Of a stretch of DNA of 64,000 nt, positions 18,366 to 28,153 are shown piece after piece (positions within the stretch are counted from its first letter, which is position 1; each line of letters opens with the position of its first letter). The position numbers and the translations under genes were made by a program. Under the pieces are notes generated by a model. The model ran no database searches. It was not told the DNA's origin and worked only from the letters and a program-made list of their open reading frames with translations. This stretch comes from Methylocystis rosea SV97 (GTDB lineage Bacteria > Pseudomonadota > Alphaproteobacteria > Rhizobiales > Beijerinckiaceae): contig NZ_KB889963.1 in assembly GCF_000372845.1 (NCBI RefSeq), positions 1,298,146 through 1,362,145 of the forward strand, given 5' to 3'.

Positions 18366-20789
18366 CTAGTCCGGCATGACCCGGAGCGGCGCTGTGAAGT
18401 CTGGCAGCGACTCAAAGCTGATTGGACCGCCGAATGTCAGGCGCACCGCCGGCGGCTCGACCGGCTTGAAGTGGCGGTCCATGACGCCGACCCCGCAAAC
18501 GGCGCCGGGGGCGAGGCCGTTGACGCACTGCTGATAGAGGGCGTCGCTCGGCAGCAGCGACCCATAGGCGTAGGTGATCTGGTCGGAGCGCGAATTGAAG
18601 ATGTTGAACGCGTCGAGCTGAATGCGCCAGCCGTCCGCCCAGCGATAGCCGAGCCGCGCGTTGAAAGTGCCAGTGGCGGGCGAGGTGAAATAGCCGTCAG
18701 GGGTTAACGGCCGCGCGCCGAAATAGCGGTATTTCATGCCGGCGAACCAACCGGTGGCCTCGCCGATTTCAAGCCCGCCCATCGCGACGATCGCGGGGGC
18801 GTTGAAGAGATAATTGCCGGGGGCGTTGCCAAGGAAGGTTCCGTAAGGCAGCGTCTCCGCCGTCGTCAGTTCGGCATAGCTGAGCCATGCATTTTGATCG
18901 ACGCCGCGGAAGCGCGTATTCACGATGGCCACATTGCCGTCGAAGCTGATCCAGGACACCGGATGATAGTGATTGGCGATTTCGATGCCGTAGCGGCGAC
19001 TCGGGCGGCCGAATTCTGTCGTGCCGGCGTCGCCGACATATTGGTTTTCGGAGTCGAGATTGAGCCAGAACAGGCTCACGCTTGAGTCGAGTCCCTCGAT
19101 GAATTTGGTGCGCCAGCCGATTTCCGCGCCGCGCGATTTCACGAGCAGTGGAATGCGCCCGACGACGGAGAAGCTATCGAGGTCGAGACCCTCGATGCCG
19201 CCGATTTCCGCGCTCGCGAAGCTCTGCACGGTGCCGCGCGCGTCGGTGGAATGGAATCCCTCGCCGAAATTCAGGAACATCTCGGTCGCATACCAGGGAC
19301 CGAGAATGATCGAGGCCTTAGGACTGAAGATAGACGCGTCTTTCTGACCATTGTTAAAGGGACCGGTCCACAGGAAAACCGGCAGCCCGGCGCTGTTGAA
19401 GACTTTGGGGGCGTCCGCCAGCGTCTGAATCGAGTTGGTGGCGGCTGAATAAAGATCGACGCGCGCGCCCGCCACCGTTCGCAGCCATGGCGTCCAACTC
19501 ACCGTCGTATCGGTCCAGATGCCGACGCTGCCTTCTCCGACATAATCGTTTCGGATCGAATCGTAGATGTTGCGGCGGAAGCTTTCCTGCAGGCCCAGAC
19601 GAATGTCGTCATAGCGACCCTGAAGCCCGAAGCGGGTCTGGACGGGAAGGCCGAAGGAGTTCCAGGCGATCCCATGCTGAGCGTTGACGCCGACGATCGT
19701 GCGCCGGTCGAACTGGCGGAACTGGTCGCCGACATCGGGATGCGCGAGGTAGTAGGTGAAGTTGTTGTAGAGTTCCAGAGTCGAGCGGATCGCGTAGGCC
19801 TCGACGCGCGAGTAGTGATTGCCCTCTGTCTGACTCCAGCGGCCCGAAAGGGAGAAGCGCGTGGTGTCGCCGCCGTCGGTCGGGTCGGTCGTGCCCCATA
19901 GCGACAGCAGGCCGGAGTTGACGGCCCGCATGGGAATCTGATCGGTCGAATACCAGCGGTTGGCGTAGGCCATCGCGGTCAACGACATGCCGTCGCTCTG
20001 CGTGCCGCGCGTCCAGCGCAAGACGCCGTTGATCTTCTTTACTTCGTCGCCGCGCTCCCAGGGACCGTTGTAAACATTCATTTCAACGGCGCCGTAGGCG
20101 TCGCCGCCATAGATGTCCTTGTATGGCTGGATGGCGAATCCGCGGCCATAGCCGAAGCTGCCGCCTGTTCCGGAGAAATAGCCTTTGTCGATTTTATCGA
20201 TGTATTGGATGTAGATCGAGCCGGCCGAAGAGAAGTCTCCGTCTTCGGCCGCGTAGGGCCCTTTCTGCACCAGAATCGACGACAACAGCTCGGGCATGAG
20301 GAAATTCGTGTCGGCGTAGCCCTGCCCGTGGCCGTGCGTGCGCATGTTCAGCGGCATGCCGTCGAGATAGAGCGCAAGATCGGTTCCGTGATCGAGGTTG
20401 AAGCCGCGCAGGAAATATTGGTTGGCTTTGCCCTCGCCTGAATGCTGCGAGACGATCAAGCCGGGCACGATTTCAAGCGACTCGCTGGGACGCGAATAGG
20501 GATAGGCCGTCACTTCCTCGCCGGTGTAGAACTTGTCGCTGGACGCCGTGAGCGGCGGCGGCTTTTGCCCGACCGACACCGTGGGATCCTGAATGGCTGG
20601 CGTGGGACGAACTGGGCCGCGCGTCGCCTGCCCACTTGGTCGCGATGGCCTCGCAGCGGTGCTGGCCGCCGGGCGCTGACCGCCGACATTGATCGTTGGG
20701 AGCGCGGTGAATTGCGCCTGCGCCTCAGCGCCAATGAGCGAAATCGCGATGGCGACAGCGGATACGGAAGCGGCGTTTCTGCGGTTCAT
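18366..20789 (-). CDS. TonB-dependent outer-membrane receptor, candidate nickel or metallophore receptor
   Basis: An 807-residue receptor. Residues 1-25 are a signal peptide (ending AEAQA). A Pro-rich linker runs to about residue 75. The plug domain follows, with NQYFLRGFNLDHGTDLALYL and the His-containing NMRTHGHGQGYADTNFL. A long barrel makes up the rest, including QLDAFNIFNSRSDQITYAY, the C-terminal receptor motif. Such receptors import metal complexes, cobalamin or other large ligands using TonB energy. It lies 124 bases after nikR on the same strand, with an imperfect palindrome in the gap, so nickel-regulated uptake is the favoured reading. The ligand cannot be read from sequence. Confidence 0.85.
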   Translation of the reverse strand: MNRRNAASVSAVAIAISLIGAEAQAQFTALPTINVGGQRPAASTAARPSRPSGQATRGPVRPTPAIQDPTVSVGQKPPPLTASSDKFYTGEEVTAYPYSRPSESLEIVPGLIVSQHSGEGKANQYFLRGFNLDHGTDLALYLDGMPLNMRTHGHGQGYADTNFLMPELLSSILVQKGPYAAEDGDFSSAGSIYIQYIDKIDKGYFSGTGGSFGYGRGFAIQPYKDIYGGDAYGAVEMNVYNGPWERGDEVKKINGVLRWTRGTQSDGMSLTAMAYANRWYSTDQIPMRAVNSGLLSLWGTTDPTDGGDTTRFSLSGRWSQTEGNHYSRVEAYAIRSTLELYNNFTYYLAHPDVGDQFRQFDRRTIVGVNAQHGIAWNSFGLPVQTRFGLQGRYDDIRLGLQESFRRNIYDSIRNDYVGEGSVGIWTDTTVSWTPWLRTVAGARVDLYSAATNSIQTLADAPKVFNSAGLPVFLWTGPFNNGQKDASIFSPKASIILGPWYATEMFLNFGEGFHSTDARGTVQSFASAEIGGIEGLDLDSFSVVGRIPLLVKSRGAEIGWRTKFIEGLDSSVSLFWLNLDSENQYVGDAGTTEFGRPSRRYGIEIANHYHPVSWISFDGNVAIVNTRFRGVDQNAWLSYAELTTAETLPYGTFLGNAPGNYLFNAPAIVAMGGLEIGEATGWFAGMKYRYFGARPLTPDGYFTSPATGTFNARLGYRWADGWRIQLDAFNIFNSRSDQITYAYGSLLPSDALYQQCVNGLAPGAVCGVGVMDRHFKPVEPPAVRLTFGGPISFESLPDFTAPLRVMPD

Positions 20790-20846
20790 TCGGCGTCACC
20801 CAACATGCGCGTTATTGTGATTTTTTTTGAAAATTGTCTTACGCGA

Positions 20847-20872
20847 TGCGTTGGGTCAATTGGCTCAATGCA
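20847..20872. promoter_or_regulatory. imperfect palindrome upstream of the receptor gene, candidate NikR operator
   Basis: TGCGTTGGGTCAA is followed directly by TTGGCTCAATGCA; ten of the thirteen positions pair as an inverted repeat. It is 58 bases upstream of the receptor start codon and downstream of nikR. It does not match the E. coli NikR consensus, so the regulator is an inference from the neighbouring gene. Confidence 0.4.
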
Positions 20873-20913
20873 ATTTGCCGAAAGCGTTGCCGATTTGCCA
20901 CAGACGACGCGCG

Positions 20914-21381
20914 CTAGCTGGAATGGTGCGGGTGGCGGCCGGTCGTGTGACGATCGACGTGGGACGTTTCGCCCTGCTCGAGATCCGCCGGCAGGACGAC
21001 GAGCTGCCCGTATCGGACGCCGCGCTCGCCGATCACATGGCCGGCGAAGTGCTCGACATCCGTCTTCTGGCCCTTGAGCAGCGACACTTCGAGACAGGTC
21101 GCTTCATCGATGTGCACGTGGAGCGTCGCGATCGACATGTCGGCGTGAGAATGATGGTCATGCATCAGTTTTTTCGACAGCTGCCGCGTCTCATGGTCGT
21201 AGACGTAAACGAGCGCGGCCATGCAGGGGCGGGCGCTGTCATCGGTTTCGGGCGTTTTCAGCAGCCCTGCGCGGACGAGATCGCGAACGGCCTCGGAGCG
21301 ATTTCGATGGCCGCCTGCCTCCATATACTGATCGAGCGCGCTCATCAGTTCTTCGTCGATCGTTATGGTTACTCGCTGCAT
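20914..21381 (-). CDS. nikR: nickel-responsive ribbon-helix-helix regulator NikR
   Basis: A 155-residue repressor. The N-terminal ribbon-helix-helix (RVTITIDEELMSALDQYM, then NRSEAVRDLVR) is followed by the ACT-like metal domain. The high-affinity nickel ligands line up with the E. coli protein as His77, His88, His90 and Cys96 (SIATLHVHIDEATCLEV). The start at 21381 gives the canonical N-terminus with GGAG upstream; the open frame is longer. The last 25 residues form an extra His-rich tail (five His) not found in the E. coli protein. It precedes the TonB-dependent receptor, its likely target. Confidence 0.93.
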   Translation of the reverse strand: MQRVTITIDEELMSALDQYMEAGGHRNRSEAVRDLVRAGLLKTPETDDSARPCMAALVYVYDHETRQLSKKLMHDHHSHADMSIATLHVHIDEATCLEVSLLKGQKTDVEHFAGHVIGERGVRYGQLVVLPADLEQGETSHVDRHTTGRHPHHSS

Positions 21382-21951
21382 GTGAGGCTCCCGCTGTCGC
21401 GCCTCGCCATGCGGTTCAACCCAGTAAAGTCGGGAAAGCGCGACCACTAGTTCATTACGCCAAGGCGCATAGGCCGCCAATAGCGTCGCGGTTTGAAGCC
21501 GGCCGTTAGCAAAAGCGCCGACGCGTTGGGGTTCTGCGGCTAACTTATTTCTCTAGGGTGTGACCTCGCATGCGTTTTGCCGCCGTTTCAGCCGCATTGT
21601 CAGAAGACAGATGCGCGTTTCAAAGCGGCTGAACAGCAGGTCGGACATTCGTTGGCCAGGACGCGCTTATGGCTCCTGCAGTTTCCTGGCGTCATTATCG
21701 CGCAACGCGTTCCCGAAGAGTCGCTACGCGGATCGCTTGAGATAATATTCCGGCGAGCCGGTCCGTGACGTTAACCATGTGATCTGAAGATGCGCGTGGG
21801 GGCTTGGGCGGGCGCATGCTTAGCTGGCTTCACTCCATCGATTATCGTCGAGACATTCGGGCTCGCCATTTACCGGATGAGTATTGACCAGCGCGCGATG
21901 GACGCTATTGTCTCCATCCGTGCGGTTTTTGAGATTTTTTGGGAGGACTCT
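21382..21951. other. 570-base gene-free region between nikR and the RiPP precursor
   Basis: These genes diverge. No reading frame here has both a ribosome site and a plausible protein. The region must hold the nikR promoter and the precursor promoter; a candidate for the latter is annotated separately. Confidence 0.45.
21884..21911 (+). promoter_or_regulatory. candidate sigma-70 promoter of the RiPP precursor gene
   Basis: TTGACC (five of six matches to the -35 consensus) and TATTGT (four of six matches to the -10 consensus) are separated by 16 bases. The start codon of the precursor lies 41 bases beyond the -10 box. Nothing better was seen in the preceding 100 bases. Confidence 0.35.
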
Positions 21952-22296
21952 ATGGCGCGCTCATCGGACAATCCGCAGAACAAACGTCGAGGCAAAAAAG
22001 CCTTCGGCGTGATGGGTGTATCTTTGTCGCTCGCGGGCGCTGCCTGCGTCGACAGTTCTCCTGCTGACGCTTCGACGGCTCCGACGACGAGCCGGACGCG
22101 CACGATCGACCTCCGCGAACAGGAAGTGTTCGACGTGGGGCTGAATTCGTTCCGCCTTTTCGACCGCGAAGAAGCGCCGGCGGTGAAGACCGAGCAGGTT
22201 GCGTGGTGGGTCGGATGTCGCGGCTGCAGGGGCTGTGGCTGTCGGGGCTGCAGGGGCTGCGGCTGTCGCGGCTGTGGCTGCCGCGGTTGCTGGTAA
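21952..22296 (+). CDS. RiPP precursor peptide with Cys-rich repeat core (azole/azoline-modified type)
   Basis: A 114-residue precursor. A basic N-terminus (NKRRGKKAFG) leads into a hydrophobic stretch (residues 19-31). An acidic leader part, REQEVFDVGLNSFRLFDRE (residues 55-73), is the likely docking site for the modifying enzyme. Residues 87-114 form the core: ten Cys at 89, 92, 95, 97, 100, 103, 105, 108, 110 and 113, spaced only by Gly and Arg-Gly, ending in Trp. GGGAGG sits five bases before the ATG at 21952. The next two genes encode a YcaO cyclodehydratase and a SagB-type dehydrogenase, so the Cys residues should become thiazolines and thiazoles. Product and activity are unknown. Confidence 0.85.
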   Translation: MARSSDNPQNKRRGKKAFGVMGVSLSLAGAACVDSSPADASTAPTTSRTRTIDLREQEVFDVGLNSFRLFDREEAPAVKTEQVAWWVGCRGCRGCGCRGCRGCGCRGCGCRGCW

Positions 22297-22316
22297 CGCA
22301 CCGCTGCACATTTGAC

Positions 22317-22341
22317 GGCTGAGCGGACGCTCCGCTCGGCC
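22317..22341 (+). promoter_or_regulatory. strong hairpin between precursor and cyclodehydratase genes
   Basis: GGCTGAGCGGA and TCCGCTCGGCC form an eleven-base-pair stem, one pair being G-T, with a three-base loop. No T run follows, so it is not a canonical terminator. It lies 20 bases after the precursor stop, where it could stabilise the precursor transcript or attenuate reading into the enzyme genes. Confidence 0.5.
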
Positions 22342-22504
22342 GCAAGCGCTTCGGGTCGATGCCTTGGGGCGAGGTGAAGCGCAGCCACGTCGTGTGGAAC
22401 GCATCTCTGTGTTCCGTGCGCGCCTGTGTTCGTCTCCCTGATTCCTGTAATCGAGCGATCTCGTCGCGCTGGGCGCCACGAGACGGGGAGCGCGCGACAG
22501 CCAA

Positions 22505-24772
22505 ATGACAATTGACGTATCTAAACCGCTTGCGCCGAAGCCGGTTTCACAAGAGCGGTTAGGCGACGCCCTACGATTCGCGCCAAATTTTTCTGTCTAT
22601 GTCCTGCCGCCTGACGCTGTCTGCCTTTATTCGGAGGACAGAAAGTTTTTCCTTCGAGGCGCGCTCTATTGCGCGCTGGCCGAGAGGATCGGCGCGGGCG
22701 AGGACACCCACGCCATACGTCAGGCGCTGTCCGCACAGTTTCCCGTCGACTCAATAGACGAGGCGTTCAAGCGACTATTCGATCGCCGATTCGTCGTCCC
22801 GGCGGGCGCATCCGATGGCGTCGCGGCGGCCTATTGGGCGAGTCTCGGCTTACAGCCGGAAGTCGCCGCGAAAAATCTGCAGAAGGTCTCGGTTCAGATC
22901 GAAGCCATCGGGATCGGCGGCGCGCGGGAGCTGGAGAAGGCGCTGGACGTTTTCGGCGTCAAGGTCGTGAAGCGCGGAGGCGATCTGACCATCGCCTTGG
23001 TCGGCGATTATCTTGAAGGTCAGCTCGCCGAGTTCAACCGCCGGCGGCTCGAGGCGAAGCAGGATTGGCTTTTGGTGCAGCCTTCCGGCGTTTTCCCGCT
23101 GGTCGGCCCGATTTTCAGCCCTGGCAAGAGCGCCTGCTGGAGATGCCTGGCCGATCGCATGAACTGGAATCGACAGGTCAAAGCGTTCCTCGGCCGCAAG
23201 GAGGCGCGCTGCGTCGCTGTTTCGCCGCTCGGCGCCAATCCGCTCGGCCTGAGCGGCGCTGGCATCGCCGCCGCGGAGATCGCGAAGGCGATCGCCAGCG
23301 GCTTCCGCACCGATCTGCACGAGCACATCGTGAGCCTGGACCTGATGGGCTCGACGGTGGCCCGTCACTATGTGCCGGCTCGGCCGCAATGCCCAAGCTG
23401 CGGTGACCCCGAGCTGCGCGATCCCGCGCGAACGCCCACGCCCATCCCGCTGCATGCCGGCAGCGCGAGCGTCGTGACGAGCGGGGGCTACAGATCGGTC
23501 GCGCCGGGCGACACTCTTGCTCGCAATCGCAAGCATGTGAGCCCGCTGACCGGCGTCGTATCGCATCTCGATCGGATCAAGAGCCAACAGCCGCTCGACG
23601 CGAGCTTCATCGCCAGACATAATTTTTCGCCGCGCCCCGAAACCGTCGACGCCCTTCAGGCCGGGCTGAGCGGAGACAGCTATGGCAAGGGCAGCGTCGC
23701 CGAACAGGGCGAAGCCAGCGCGCTGATGGAGGCGATCGAGCGCTACTGCGGGATTTTCCAGGGCGACGAGATCAGGATCGTCCGACGATTCGCGGATTTC
23801 CCGGCCGGCGAGGCGATCCTGCCCGATGACATCCTGCTCTATAGCGACGCGCAATATGAGCAGGGCGCGAAAAGCGGCGGCTGCGGCGAGGGCGCACAGC
23901 GCTTCGATCCCGCCGCAGAGACGGAATGGTCGCCAGTGTGGTCTCTGCGCGACGAATGTTTCAAATACGTTCCCACCGGCCTTCTGTATTTCTTCCACGA
24001 GTCCGGCTGCGCGAACCAGATCAGCGCCGATTCGAACGGTTGCGCGGCGGGCAATACGATCGAGGAAGCCATTATTCAGGGTTTCCTCGAACTCGTTGAG
24101 CGGGACGCCTATGCGATCTGGTGGTACAACCGTTTGCGTCGTCCGGAGATTGATCTCGACAAGCTCGGCGACAGCTATGTGCGCGACCTCCGCGCCGTCT
24201 TCGCGAGGATGGGCCGCGACGTCTGGGCGCTGGACATAACGAGCGATCTTGGCATTCCCGTCGTCGTCGCCGTCGCCCATTGGATTGAGGACGGACGGGA
24301 ATATATCGAAGTCGCAGCGGGCGCGCATTTCGATCCAAGGATCGCGACGCTGCGCGCCATGACCGAGCTCAACCAGTTTCTCGCCATCGACAGCCTCGGC
24401 GGCCGTCCCGAGCTCGGGCCCGACGACGATTATGGGGGCGACCCTCTGCCGCTGCGCAAGCACGTCTATATGCGGCCGCAGGGCAAGGCGTCCTTCGGCC
24501 GGTCGCGGTTCAAGAATTTCGCCCAACTCGACGGCCGCGACCAGGTGCTGGCCTGCGTCAAGCTCGCCGCGCGGGCTGGGCACGATTTCCTCGTCCTCGA
24601 TCAGACGCGCCCCGACATTGACGTGCCGGTGGTCCGGGTGATCGTTCCGGGACTGCGGCATTTCTATCGCCGCTTCGGCCCCGGACGTCTCTACGACGTG
24701 CCCATCGCGCTGGGTCTGCGCAAGCGGCCGGTGCGCGAAGCCGATGTCAATCCCTTGTTCCCCCGCACCTAA
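22505..24772 (+). CDS. YcaO cyclodehydratase fused to E1-like leader-binding domain
   Basis: A 755-residue fusion expected to convert Cys residues of the precursor to thiazolines using ATP. Residues 1-310 are the E1-like partner with leader recognition; two CxxC pairs (CWRC at 211-214 and CPSC at 296-299) form its structural zinc site. The YcaO domain follows, with the ATP/Mg blocks EQGEASALMEAIERY (400-414) and later EEAIIQGFLELVERDAYA. The C-terminus, NPLFPRT, lacks the PxPxP ending common in cyclodehydratases. The 208-base gap before it contains a hairpin; its 3' end overlaps the dehydrogenase gene by 29 bases. Confidence 0.92.
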   Translation: MTIDVSKPLAPKPVSQERLGDALRFAPNFSVYVLPPDAVCLYSEDRKFFLRGALYCALAERIGAGEDTHAIRQALSAQFPVDSIDEAFKRLFDRRFVVPAGASDGVAAAYWASLGLQPEVAAKNLQKVSVQIEAIGIGGARELEKALDVFGVKVVKRGGDLTIALVGDYLEGQLAEFNRRRLEAKQDWLLVQPSGVFPLVGPIFSPGKSACWRCLADRMNWNRQVKAFLGRKEARCVAVSPLGANPLGLSGAGIAAAEIAKAIASGFRTDLHEHIVSLDLMGSTVARHYVPARPQCPSCGDPELRDPARTPTPIPLHAGSASVVTSGGYRSVAPGDTLARNRKHVSPLTGVVSHLDRIKSQQPLDASFIARHNFSPRPETVDALQAGLSGDSYGKGSVAEQGEASALMEAIERYCGIFQGDEIRIVRRFADFPAGEAILPDDILLYSDAQYEQGAKSGGCGEGAQRFDPAAETEWSPVWSLRDECFKYVPTGLLYFFHESGCANQISADSNGCAAGNTIEEAIIQGFLELVERDAYAIWWYNRLRRPEIDLDKLGDSYVRDLRAVFARMGRDVWALDITSDLGIPVVVAVAHWIEDGREYIEVAAGAHFDPRIATLRAMTELNQFLAIDSLGGRPELGPDDDYGGDPLPLRKHVYMRPQGKASFGRSRFKNFAQLDGRDQVLACVKLAARAGHDFLVLDQTRPDIDVPVVRVIVPGLRHFYRRFGPGRLYDVPIALGLRKRPVREADVNPLFPRT

Positions 24773-26213
24773 CTTGCCTAGCGATACGTCCCAACCGCCA
24801 CCGCCGCCAGCACGGCTCTTCGCGCGACTCAATCCTGGCGTCGCGCTTGAGCGCAACGCCGCCGGCGGGCTCACGGCCCTTTTCGATGGTCGGAGCGTGG
24901 AGTTCGGAAAGTTTGGCGCCGATGTCACAGAGCGCGCCGCCGACTTCGACACGGGCGTGGCGTTCGATGGCGAGCGAAACGGGGAGATGAGCGAACTCGT
25001 CCGAAGGCTGGCGCTTTACGGACTCGTGGAATATCGCCTGGCGCGCGCGCCGAACGGTCCCGATCTCATCGTCGTCGAGCCGCAGATGCGCGACTATGCG
25101 CCACGGATGATCGAACTCGACGAGGATCGCGCTCTGGCGCTGTCGCGCTTCGCCTATATTCGGCGGCGCGGCGCCGACATGGTGCTCGAGTCGCCGCGCG
25201 CCATGGCGCTTTTCCGATTGTGCGATCCCAGCGTTACAGCAATGATCGCGCATCTGTCGGAGGCGCGCACGGTGAGAGAGCTTTGCGCCTTGGCCGACTT
25301 TTCGGGAGCCGAGCTGCTGGCGCTGCTCCTCGATAGCCAGATTCTGTTCACGCCCGGTCCGGGCGCCGACAAAGCGCTTCGCGCGGCCGAAGGCGACGAC
25401 GATCTCATCTTATGGGATTTCCACGATCTGCTGTTCCACAGCCGCAGCACGAACGGGCGTCACGCCAATCCTTCCGGCGGGATCTATGCCCACGCGCATC
25501 TCGCAGCGCTGCCGCCCGCGGTACGGCCGAGCTGGCCGGGGCCGGCGATCGACCTGAAGACGCTTGAGACGGCGCCGCCTTCGGCCTTTGCGACACTGCT
25601 GCGGCGCAGACGCTCGATTCGCGTCTTCGATGAGCAGCGCCCGATCACGCTGACGGAGGTGGCGCGGCTCCTCGACGGCGCCGCACGAATCATATCGCGA
25701 GAGCGAAAAACTGACGAAGACGAGGATGAGTCAGAGGTCGCCCCTCGCCCCTATCCGTCGGGCGGCGCGAGCTACGAATTGGAGCTCTATCTCGCCGTCG
25801 ACAGATGTGAGGGTCTGGCGCGCGGCTTCTATCATTACGACGCCAACCAGCACGCTCTTGTTTTGATCGAGACGAACGCGCATTGGCTCACGGCCATGCT
25901 GGAGGACGCGCAATTCGCCATGGGCGCGCCGGCAGTCCCGCAAATCCTCATTACAATGTCGGCGCGTTTTAGCCGCGTGTCCTGGAAGTACAGCGGCTTC
26001 GCCTATGCGCTCGTTCTGAAACACGTCGGCGTGCTGATGCAGACGCTCTATCTGATGGCCACGGAGATGGAGATCGGGGCCTGCGCGGTCGGCGTCGGAG
26101 ATATCGACCTCTTTGCGAAGATGACGGGCCTCGCGTTTCACGTTGAAGGGTCGGTCGGCCAGGTCGCAATCGGACGCGGCGTTCAAAGCGATTCAACGCC
26201 GCTCGCCGATTGA
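24744..26213 (+). CDS. SagB-type FMN-dependent azoline dehydrogenase
   Basis: A 489-residue protein. The C-terminal half (about residue 270 onward) is a nitroreductase-fold FMN oxidase: RRRRSIRVFDEQRPITLTEV, then PYPSGGASYELELYLAV, and the closing MATEMEIGACAVGVGD. It should oxidise thiazolines made by the preceding YcaO protein to thiazoles. The N-terminal 250 residues form the poorly conserved extension common in SagB-type proteins. The ATG overlaps the end of the YcaO gene by 29 bases in another frame, implying coupling. The next gene is convergent, so the operon ends here. Confidence 0.88.
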   Translation: MSIPCSPAPNLPSDTSQPPPPPARLFARLNPGVALERNAAGGLTALFDGRSVEFGKFGADVTERAADFDTGVAFDGERNGEMSELVRRLALYGLVEYRLARAPNGPDLIVVEPQMRDYAPRMIELDEDRALALSRFAYIRRRGADMVLESPRAMALFRLCDPSVTAMIAHLSEARTVRELCALADFSGAELLALLLDSQILFTPGPGADKALRAAEGDDDLILWDFHDLLFHSRSTNGRHANPSGGIYAHAHLAALPPAVRPSWPGPAIDLKTLETAPPSAFATLLRRRRSIRVFDEQRPITLTEVARLLDGAARIISRERKTDEDEDESEVAPRPYPSGGASYELELYLAVDRCEGLARGFYHYDANQHALVLIETNAHWLTAMLEDAQFAMGAPAVPQILITMSARFSRVSWKYSGFAYALVLKHVGVLMQTLYLMATEMEIGACAVGVGDIDLFAKMTGLAFHVEGSVGQVAIGRGVQSDSTPLAD

Positions 26214-26283
26214 CCGCGCGTCGCCAGTGCGACTGACAGATCGGCGGTCAGGAATCGTCCAGTGACCAGCGTCGGGGGCGCCT

Positions 26284-28153
26284 TCAGGTGGTCTCCATAA
26301 CTCCAAGAACAGCGCCGACCTTCTGCGCCAACTGCTCGATCGAGAATGGCTTTGGCAGGAAATTTACGCCGCGATCGAGCACGCCGTTATGAATCACGGC
26401 GTTTCGCGAGAAGCCCGTAGTAAACACAATCTTCAGGTCGGGGCGACGGCGCAGCGCCTCTTCCGCGAGCGCGCGACCGTTCATGTCCGGCATGACAATG
26501 TCCGTGAATAGCAGATCGATATCAGGATTGGCGTTTATAAGCGCAAGCGCCTCGGCGGCGCTCCCTGCGGCGAGCACGCTGTACCTCAAATCCTGGAACA
26601 TCGCGACCGCGATGCTCCGCATCCAATCCTCATCTTCGACGACGAGGATGAGCGTCTCTGGTGAACCTCGGAAAGCCATCCCGGCAGCGCTCGGCTCACG
26701 CCTTGGACCGGCGACTTCTCCCTCGCCAACGAAGCGTGGCAGATAAATCTTGACCGTCGTGCCCTGGCCAATCTCCGAATAGATTTTGATGTGTCCGCCC
26801 GACTGCTTGACGAAACCGAACACTTGACTGAGGCCGAGCCCAGTTCCCTTGCCAGGGCCTTTGGTGGTGAAGAACGGCTCAAAGGCTTGTGCGATAATTT
26901 CCGGCGGCATGCCGGCTCCGGAATCGCTGACGGCGACCAATACGTATTGACCCTCCTTCACTTCGGCGTGTTCCCGCGCGTAGTGGTCGTCGATGTAAGC
27001 GTTCGAGGTCTCGATCGTCACCTTGCCTTCGTCGTTCATCGCATCGCGGGCGTTGACCGCCAGATTCAATATCGCGCTCTCGAGTTGGTTGGGGTCGACG
27101 TGGATCCGCCAGACCCCGCTCGCGAGAACCGTCTCGACACTGATGGATTCGCCAAGGGTGCGCCGGATCATCTCCGCCATGCCGCCCACCAACTTATTGG
27201 CGTCCACGGTTTGGGGCGCGAGCGGCTGCTGACGCGAAAAGGCGAGGAGGCGATGAGTTAAAGCTGCTGCGCGATCGACGCACTCCATGGCCTTGTCGAT
27301 CAAGCTATCCTTGTCGATCTCGCCGCGCGCCATCTTGCGCTTCAGGAGGTTGAGGCATCCGACGATGACCGCAAGCATATTGTTGAAGTCATGCGCCAAG
27401 CCGCCCGTAAGCTGCCCGACCGCTTGCATTTTCTGCGCTTGCCTGAGTTGGCTTTCCACGCGCTCCCGCCGCTCGCTTTCCTCGGCCGCCTGCTTGAGCG
27501 CAATTCGAAGCGCGACATTGGCCGTCTGAAGTTCGGCGACCTGCCTCTGTCGGTCTTTGAGGGTCGCCCAACCCAGGAGAGCCGCTGACAGGAGAGCGCC
27601 TGCAACGCCAATCTGCGTCAACGTCGCCGTCCAACGCATTTCGGCGTTTCTCGTCGTCAAAAGGCGCTCTTCTTCGGCGAGCATTTCGGCGATGATGCCG
27701 CGCGCCTCATCCATGAGACGTTTTCCGACCTTGAGACGATCGGCTAACGTCGCGTCCGGCGTCGCGCCGCGTTCTTCGATGCGTTTTTGTAATGCAACTA
27801 GTCGGTCTGCGACGACGGAACGCAGACGTTTCAGTCGTTGCATCTGCTGTTCGTTGTCGAAGACAGCCTGCTCTAAGGCGCCCAAACGCTCGCCAATGGT
27901 TCGATCGGCGTTACGGAAGGGCTCCAAGAAAATTTCGTTGCCCGTCAGCAAGAACCCCCGCTGGCCGGTTTCCGCATCCTGAAGGGTGGAGAGGGTTTGC
28001 AGAAGCGCCGTGCGCACATAAAGCGTGTGCTCGACCCATGTTTGCCGCCACCTGTCTTTGAAGCGAGATGGCGGCGCCGCCGATCGCCGCGACCAGACAT
28101 CCGAAGATGGCCCATGACACGGCCTTTTTCGGAAGCGTAACCGTTACCGTCAT
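26284..28153 (-). CDS. CHASE3 hybrid histidine kinase with C-terminal receiver; N-terminal frameshift
   Basis: From the N-terminus: a first membrane helix ([18 protein letters not shown]), a CHASE3 sensor ([17 protein letters not shown]), a second membrane helix, a dimerisation helix with [20 protein letters not shown] holding the phospho-acceptor His, an ATPase domain ([33 protein letters not shown]), and a receiver with phospho-Asp in [13 protein letters not shown]. The first helix is in one frame, while the CHASE3 block [15 protein letters not shown] is in another. A single-base shift therefore lies near 28045-28070. The main frame from 28017 would give a 577-residue product without the first helix. 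The gene is either disrupted or contains a sequencing error. Confidence 0.8.

What the first reader, a model, noticed from the sequence alone, without database searches (positions are those of the whole stretch)
21952..26213. Compact heterocycle-forming RiPP locus with a ten-Cys repeat core
Seen: a 114-residue precursor whose last 26 residues place ten Cys apart only by Gly or Arg-Gly, followed by a YcaO/E1-like fusion and an overlapping SagB-type dehydrogenase. Established: YcaO plus SagB proteins turn Cys/Ser/Thr of precursors into azolines and azoles. Inference: the product would be a polythiazole peptide, here with no Ser or Thr in the core. I recall similar Arg-Gly-Cys-rich precursors in other Hyphomicrobiales, but cannot name a characterised product.
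Basis: partly seen in the sequence, partly recalled or inferred. Interest (0 to 1): 0.9.

Follow-up and report, generated by a model that had tools for sequence, protein, structure and literature searches.

The report
Secreted-type polythiazole peptide gene cluster
A methane-eating bacterium carries a short gene cluster that probably turns a cysteine-repeat peptide into a chain of thiazole rings; the peptide begins with what looks like an ordinary export signal, and in related strains its last amino acid differs according to whether a neighbouring amidase gene is present or lost.

Summary
In detail: a 114-aa precursor with ten Gly-Cys units, a fused E1-like/YcaO cyclodehydratase and an overlapping SagB-type dehydrogenase. 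By sequence the enzymes are closest to cyanobactin LynD/TruD and CyaGox. The host is Methylocystis-like. Close relatives form one Hyphomicrobiales clade; the precursor matches no curated model, and ten paper searches found no description.

Sec export is inferred, not shown. (2) In the larger branch a tandem VOC protein is a constant partner: of 195 Bradyrhizobium genomes 85 have both, 0 the VOC alone, 3 the YcaO alone. (3) In the Methylocystaceae branch a Tat-signal amidase follows instead; with it the core ends in Gly/Ala (18 of 18), without it in Trp (5 of 5). The YcaO tree forces at least 3 changes and deletion scars differ. The window is a deleted, Trp-ended case.

Verdict: new variant of a known kind; product and function untested.

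The parts
21884..21911 (+). promoter-like pair TTGACC (21884-21889) and TATTGT (21906-21911), 16-bp spacer
   Evidence: sequence; block conserved in 14 Methylocystis-type upstream regions
21941..21946 (+). ribosome-binding site GGGAGG
   Evidence: sequence
21952..22296 (+). precursor peptide gene, 114 aa
21952..22071 (+). signal-peptide-like part, residues 1-40, ending in the A-D-A candidate cleavage site
   Evidence: layout test on 119 relatives, this one passing; cleavage site inferred
22132..22164 (+). conserved DVGLNSFRLFD motif, presumed docking motif for the E1-like part
   Evidence: conserved in relatives; role inferred
22216..22293 (+). core: last 26 residues, ten Cys; terminal Trp codon 22291-22293
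22505..24772 (+). fused E1-like/YcaO cyclodehydratase, 755 aa
   Evidence: TIGR03882, TIGR03604, PF02624; collinear with LynD/TruD
24744..26213 (+). SagB-type FMN dehydrogenase, 489 aa
   Evidence: TIGR03605, PF22767, PF00881; CyaGox-like
26262..26271 (+). deletion scar: about 10 bases matching the 5' end of the amidase gene of relative L002, directly followed by sequence that lies beyond that gene in L002
   Evidence: blastn of the window against L002

Best explanation
The locus is the minimal form of a Hyphomicrobiales family of azole RiPPs. The E1-like part binds the DVxLxxFxxFD motif, the YcaO part uses ATP to close Gly-Cys units into thiazolines, and SagB oxidises them to thiazoles (established chemistry of these families; inferred here by homology). 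The precursor carries its own Sec-type signal peptide ahead of the docking motif, so after modification in the cytoplasm it most likely leaves through the general secretory pathway and is cut by signal peptidase after an A-x-A site. In Methylocystaceae relatives a Tat-exported amidase then acts at the Gly/Ala-bearing C-terminus; where the terminal codon has become Trp the amidase is gone, as in this window. In the other branch a tandem VOC protein is the partner and probably binds the product, by analogy with bleomycin-binding VOC proteins (recalled). Shown: gene content, motifs, conservation, co-occurrence, scars. Inferred: azole formation, export, cleavage site, roles of VOC and amidase.
For: Family and kinship matches; YcaO motifs intact in 82 of 82 and the dehydrogenase KY motif in 77 of 80 sequences, the window counted twice in both; signal-peptide layout in 109 of 119 against a shuffle maximum of 3; purifying selection on the leader; VOC beside 60 of 80 loci in two different positions, 51 upstream and 9 downstream; 85 both / 0 VOC alone / 3 YcaO alone / 107 neither in 195 Bradyrhizobium genomes, within 3.4 kb start to start in 83 of 85; VOC also beside Bradyrhizobium-like copies in two Methylocystis genomes and on a Methylovirgula plasmid; amidase with RR-type Tat motif in 19 of 19 distinct copies, and amidase/terminal residue matched in 23 of 23 loci, with at least 3 changes on the YcaO tree and different scars.
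Against: No product, mass or localisation data. Signal-peptide criteria were my own and set after seeing the sequences; 10 of 119 fail, an earlier cruder test passed 58 of 67, and no trained predictor was available. YcaO and SagB trees disagree, so recombination may have carried linked alleles. G448 holds a second 60 % VOC and G577 a second 42 % VOC far from the cluster, and more distant VOC relatives occur in genomes with no cluster hit, such as Sinorhizobium plasmid records. L024 has a VOC but ends in Trp. G605, which lacks the amidase beside its cluster, has a 46 % amidase on another contig.
Confidence: 0.6

Rival explanations
1. An ordinary antimicrobial linear azole peptide, like microcin B17 or phazolicin. 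The hydrophobic N-terminus is part of an ordinary leader; export and cleavage are done by genes elsewhere in the genome; VOC is the immunity protein.
For: Gly-Cys-rich core and enzyme set fit linear azole peptides; patchy presence within genera (88 of 195 Bradyrhizobium, 25 of 39 Methylocystis) fits a bacteriocin; a plasmid copy exists.
Against: Strong signal-peptide layout; no exporter-type family among the shared neighbours that I looked at: of the two transporter families seen, a solute-binding protein and an OppC-like permease (7 and 6 loci), both look like an importer and sit in a subgroup only; the window has neither VOC nor any other evident immunity gene.
Confidence: 0.25
2. A metal-binding envelope peptide, working like a bufferin or a metallophore: thiazoles, or Cys left as thiols, bind copper or nickel; the nearby NikR and TonB-dependent receptor genes belong to the same system.
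For: Exported Cys-rich precursors of this layout are known from copper-binding bufferins (PMC12452194, passages); nikR and a TonB-dependent receptor lie upstream in the window; some cores have His in place of Arg (L027 and L117); a multicopper oxidase lies beside the plasmid copy.
Against: NikR and the receptor are found in only 8 of 91 related loci examined, all close Methylocystis relatives; no metal-regulated element was tested; full conversion to azoles would remove the thiols.
Confidence: 0.2
3. The amidase/terminal-residue match is not functional: one Trp, amidase-less haplotype spread by recombination among Methylocystis strains.
For: YcaO and SagB trees place L000, L005 and L007 differently; these three share the same core end.
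Against: Scars differ between L000, L005/L007, L009 and L010; both trees need more than one change; no mismatch in 23 loci.
Confidence: 0.2

Closest known systems
Cyanobactin heterocyclases LynD, TruD, MusD and oxidase CyaGox
   Same: Full-length collinear fusion (residues 22-751 for TruD) and same type of oxidase, as the best PDB matches.
   Different: No cyanobactin-type protease gene recognised in the window cluster; precursor has one Gly-Cys array at its C-terminus and a signal-peptide-like start. Protease-based macrocyclisation as defined in PMC4603692 (section read) is not indicated.
[quoted passage not shown]
   Same: E1-like plus YcaO plus FMN dehydrogenase with a Gly-Cys-rich core.
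   Different: Signal-peptide-like N-terminus; VOC or amidase partner in relatives. Word searches for rhizobi-, Methylo-, signal peptide, glyoxalase and bleomycin in PMC4603692 gave 0 hits (main text only, supplements not seen).
Bufferins and oxazolins
   Same: Short Cys-bearing precursor with a Sec-type signal peptide, modified by a clustered enzyme (PMC12452194, passages).
   Different: Those are modified by MNIO enzymes; here the modifying genes are YcaO and SagB.
Rv0577/Cfp30B (PDB 3oxh), tandem VOC protein
   Same: Closest solved relative of the Bradyrhizobium partner VOC.
   Different: No RiPP link known to me (recalled); the VOC partner is absent from the window genome.
Amidase-signature enzymes UMG-SP1 urethanase and ClbL
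   Same: Closest solved relatives of the amidase of relative L002.
   Different: Amidase here has a Tat-type start and sits in an azole RiPP cluster; it is deleted in the window.

Membership tests
TOMM / linear azol(in)e-containing peptide | Clustered E1-like and YcaO cyclodehydratase | tested here: met
   TIGR03882, TIGR03604, PF02624 above cut-off
TOMM / linear azol(in)e-containing peptide | Short precursor with Cys/Ser/Thr/Gly-rich C-terminal core beside the cyclodehydratase | tested here: met
   21952-22296
TOMM / linear azol(in)e-containing peptide | Azoles or azolines in the product | not testable with these tools
   needs mass spectrometry
Cyanobactin | Cyanobactin-type heterocyclase and oxidase | tested here: met
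   best PDB matches LynD/TruD and CyaGox; sequence only
Cyanobactin | PatA/PatG-type proteases that excise and macrocyclise the core | tested here: not met
   the dehydrogenase has no protease match, and no protease among the six window proteins scanned; genes further away in the genome were not scanned
Bufferin | Sec-type signal peptide on a Cys-bearing precursor | tested here: inconclusive
   layout present in 109 of 119, no trained predictor, no experiment
Bufferin | MNIO (DUF692-type) modifying enzyme with its partner protein in the cluster | tested here: not met
   the two clustered enzymes are YcaO and SagB; no MNIO match among the six window proteins scanned
Nif11 / NHLP leaders and other named RiPP precursor families | Match to a curated precursor or leader model | tested here: not met
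   no NCBIfam match at E<=10; no Pfam match above cut-off

The most novel reading that the evidence does not exclude
A YcaO family whose thiazole-chain product is exported by the general Sec route and finished in the periplasm by a Tat-exported amidase that works only on Gly/Ala-ended cores, so that a single Gly-to-Trp codon change makes the amidase dispensable; in the sister branch a VOC protein dedicated to this product takes the accessory place. The role would be a resident envelope function rather than a released antibiotic.
Probability: 0.3. Interest if true: 0.8.

Novelty: new variant of a known kind. Interest (0 to 1): 0.6.

Why it matters
[quoted passage not shown] A countable YcaO family of the same layout would extend this route to another RiPP chemistry. 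The amidase/terminal-residue match is a natural experiment on what the amidase does, and the VOC partner is a concrete candidate for a thiazole-peptide-binding protein.

Tried and rejected
Metallophore reading from the neighbouring nikR and TonB-dependent receptor: found in only 8 of 91 related loci examined, all close Methylocystis relatives, so kept only within a rival. Lipoprotein reading of the Cys after the hydrophobic stretch: that Cys is missing in L011 and L012. Tat signal on the precursor: I saw no RRx-hydrophobic pattern in the N-termini that I read. RNA element in the 208-base gap after the precursor: no Rfam hit in 20800-28100; fold z-score -1.19, 20 of 200 shuffles as stable. Phages: no YcaO match at E<=1e-20. 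Distant YcaO relatives (L094-L098, L109-L116; 33-43 % identity): no Gly-Cys precursor recognised within 3.5 kb, so not counted as the same family. Carbamoyltransferase in L011-L014 and L016: one subgroup plus three Bradyrhizobium loci. Literature: (ten answered searches, open-licence papers only) gave no description of this family in what I saw, which was listings, starts of abstracts and passages. Papers opened: PMC4603692 (outline with abstract, word search, section 4 part 4, sections 5 and 9), PMC12452194, PMC8120280 and PMC10128002 (passages).

Limits of counts; 120 rows (67 loci with a precursor found by the first pattern, 53 of 55 proteins; P0021 and P0028 dropped for lacking the motif), 119 unique. 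Fourteen of the 81 loci (window and L002-L081) were left out of that count because the pattern or the contig gave no precursor; one search shows similar precursors in eight of them (L027, L060, L061, L064, L065, L070, L074, L080); 38 rows; I set aside 14 judged to be the same genomes fetched twice (contig length and identities alike) and L003, which has no precursor on its contig, leaving 23. L135 and L136 are near copies. L005 has only 1261 bases after SagB, but its scar is seen. The two Methylocystis genomes with Bradyrhizobium-like copies (L092, L093) belong to the VOC branch and are not among the 23. L025 has a VOC-type core but a contig too short to show a VOC. The 1-in-33,649 figure is C(23,5), worked out by hand. 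The tree is the quick kind. Scar ends come from local alignments and are approximate.

Full report
The observation. The precursor (21952-22296, 114 aa), the E1-like/YcaO fusion (22505-24772) and the SagB-type dehydrogenase (24744-26213, overlapping by 29 bases) are present as described. Ten Cys lie in the last 26 residues, each after a Gly, with no Ser or Thr there. A ribosome-binding site and a promoter-like pair precede the ATG at 21952. The leader evolves under purifying selection (dN 0.012-0.204 against dS 0.2-1.7 in six comparisons). The genome is 3.9 Mb in two contigs and gave one YcaO match; the closest precursor is labelled Methylocystis rosea.

The enzymes. The best PDB matches of the fusion are the cyanobactin heterocyclases LynD, TruD and MusD, collinear over residues 22 or 23 to 751, and of the dehydrogenase CyaGox. 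Two YcaO motifs are intact in 82 of 82 sequences and the dehydrogenase KY motif in 77 of 80, the window counted twice in both. Azole formation is therefore likely, but it was not observed.

Distribution. A scan of species genomes gave 129 relatives, of which the best 80 were kept, 55-98 % identical. Whole-genome counts at E<=1e-60, the window's genome included where it belongs: 8 of 397 Hyphomicrobiales; 88 of 195 Bradyrhizobium, among them two about 40 % identical and one fragment; 25 of 39 Methylocystis; 13 of 385 Alphaproteobacteria, where the twelve other than the window's genome are 35-43 % identical. In thirteen distant loci that I fetched (L094-L098, L109-L116) I recognised no Gly-Cys precursor; four of them show a SagB match (L095, L097, L098, L115). 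One close copy lies on a Methylovirgula plasmid.

Signal-peptide-like N-terminus. The precursors begin with a basic stretch, an uncharged hydrophobic stretch and an A-x-A-type site, then a linker, the conserved docking-type motif and the core. By criteria that I set after seeing the sequences, 109 of 119 unique precursors pass, against a mean of 0.44 and a maximum of 3 in 200 rounds of residue shuffling. The ten failures are listed in that call. An earlier, cruder test passed 58 of 67, with start codons misplaced in several. Among the neighbour families shared by most loci I saw no transporter or protease; a solute-binding protein (7 loci) and an OppC-like permease (6 loci), both importer-type, occur in a subgroup. 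PMC12452194 calls Sec signal peptides highly unusual in bacterial RiPP precursors (passages). Of 1535 core Cys, 1185 follow a Gly and 126 an Arg.

The VOC partner. A tandem VOC protein (PF00903, two stretches; closest solved relative Rv0577) lies on the strand opposite to the cluster beside 60 of 80 loci: 51 upstream and 9 downstream. Of the 20 others, 13 had room to show it, all in the Methylocystaceae branch, and 7 had too little room. In 195 Bradyrhizobium genomes 85 carry both, none the VOC alone, 3 the YcaO alone (two distant, one fragment), 107 neither; the two lie within 3.4 kb, start to start, in 83 of 85 and on different contigs in G423 and G552. Two genomes, G448 and G577, have a second, unlinked VOC of 60 % and 42 %. 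The VOC is beside the plasmid copy and beside the Bradyrhizobium-like copies of two Methylocystis genomes, which group with Beijerinckiaceae copies in a quick tree. VOC relatives of 34-46 % occur on plasmids of Sinorhizobium and others, records that did not turn up in the plasmid YcaO search, so the wider VOC family is not specific to this system. In the consensus of 60 sequences the first domain mostly has Tyr where the second mostly has His in W-[YH]-E-L; that this means a lost metal site is my inference. The window genome has only a 30 % single-domain match.

The amidase and the last residue. In the Methylocystaceae branch an amidase (PF01425; PDB relatives UMG-SP1 urethanase and ClbL) follows SagB in 19 of 24 distinct loci. 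All 19 begin with an RR Tat-type motif. In the 23 of these loci that show a precursor, 18 have the amidase and end in Gly or Ala, 5 lack it and end in Trp, and none is mismatched. Under free pairing this has a chance of 1 in 33,649, which ignores relatedness. Starred branches of the YcaO DNA tree force at least 3 changes, those of the SagB tree at least 2. The Trp codon is TGG; the nearest Gly-ended relatives L002 and L120 have GGG. Scars differ: in the window the match to L002 runs about 10 bases into the amidase and resumes 1738 bases later; L005 and L007 break before the gene; L009 breaks about 25 bases into it; L010 keeps an internal remnant, also seen as a 70 % match of 56 residues. L009 and L010 are sisters in the YcaO tree with the same terminal Trp and different scars, which suggests that the Trp came first. 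In the window's genome and in those of L005, L009 and L010 the full-length amidase matches elsewhere are 28-29 % identical; the genome of L007 (G605) has a 46 % one.

Outside that branch, 57 of 58 VOC-bearing loci with a precursor end in Cys and one, L024, in Trp, so the Trp rule is claimed for the Methylocystaceae branch only.

Interpretation. The simplest account is a polythiazole peptide modified in the cytoplasm, exported through Sec, and in most Methylocystaceae loci finished at its C-terminus by a periplasmic amidase; in the other branch a VOC protein accompanies it. The window strain is the most reduced form. Whether the product is an antibiotic, a metal binder or something else is open.

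Novelty. No curated model covers the precursor, and ten paper searches showed no description of the family. It is filed as a new variant of the azole RiPPs, not as a new kind.

Noticed in passing
window 18366-21480 (-): nikR and a TonB-dependent receptor lie divergently upstream of the cluster; the pair was found in 8 of 91 related loci examined, all close Methylocystis relatives.
   Followed up: partly
Bradyrhizobium loci, VOC-precursor intergenic region (e.g. L033, L075): A conserved palindrome-like block, TTCATC-AA-GATGAA in L033, in the alignment of 40 upstream regions; possibly an operator.
   Followed up: no
L011-L014, L016: A NodU-type carbamoyltransferase (PF02543/PF16861) lies beside the precursor in this subgroup.
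   Followed up: no
L117 (Methylovirgula plasmid pHY1): The plasmid copy lies between a multicopper oxidase and cbb3-type oxidase genes; its precursor has no listed gene and has His-Gly repeats in the core.
   Followed up: no
L074: A record titled Frankia sp. RB7 carries a copy that sits among Bradyrhizobium copies in the YcaO tree; mislabelling or contamination is possible.
   Followed up: no
L094-L098, L109-L116: Alphaproteobacterial YcaO fusions of 33-43 % identity with no precursor recognised nearby; SagB match in 4 of 13; substrate unknown.
   Followed up: partly
L135/L136, L000, L002 and other close relatives: The number of Cys in the core varies (9-13 in the Methylocystaceae branch) between strains with nearly identical enzymes, as expected of repeat slippage.
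   Followed up: no
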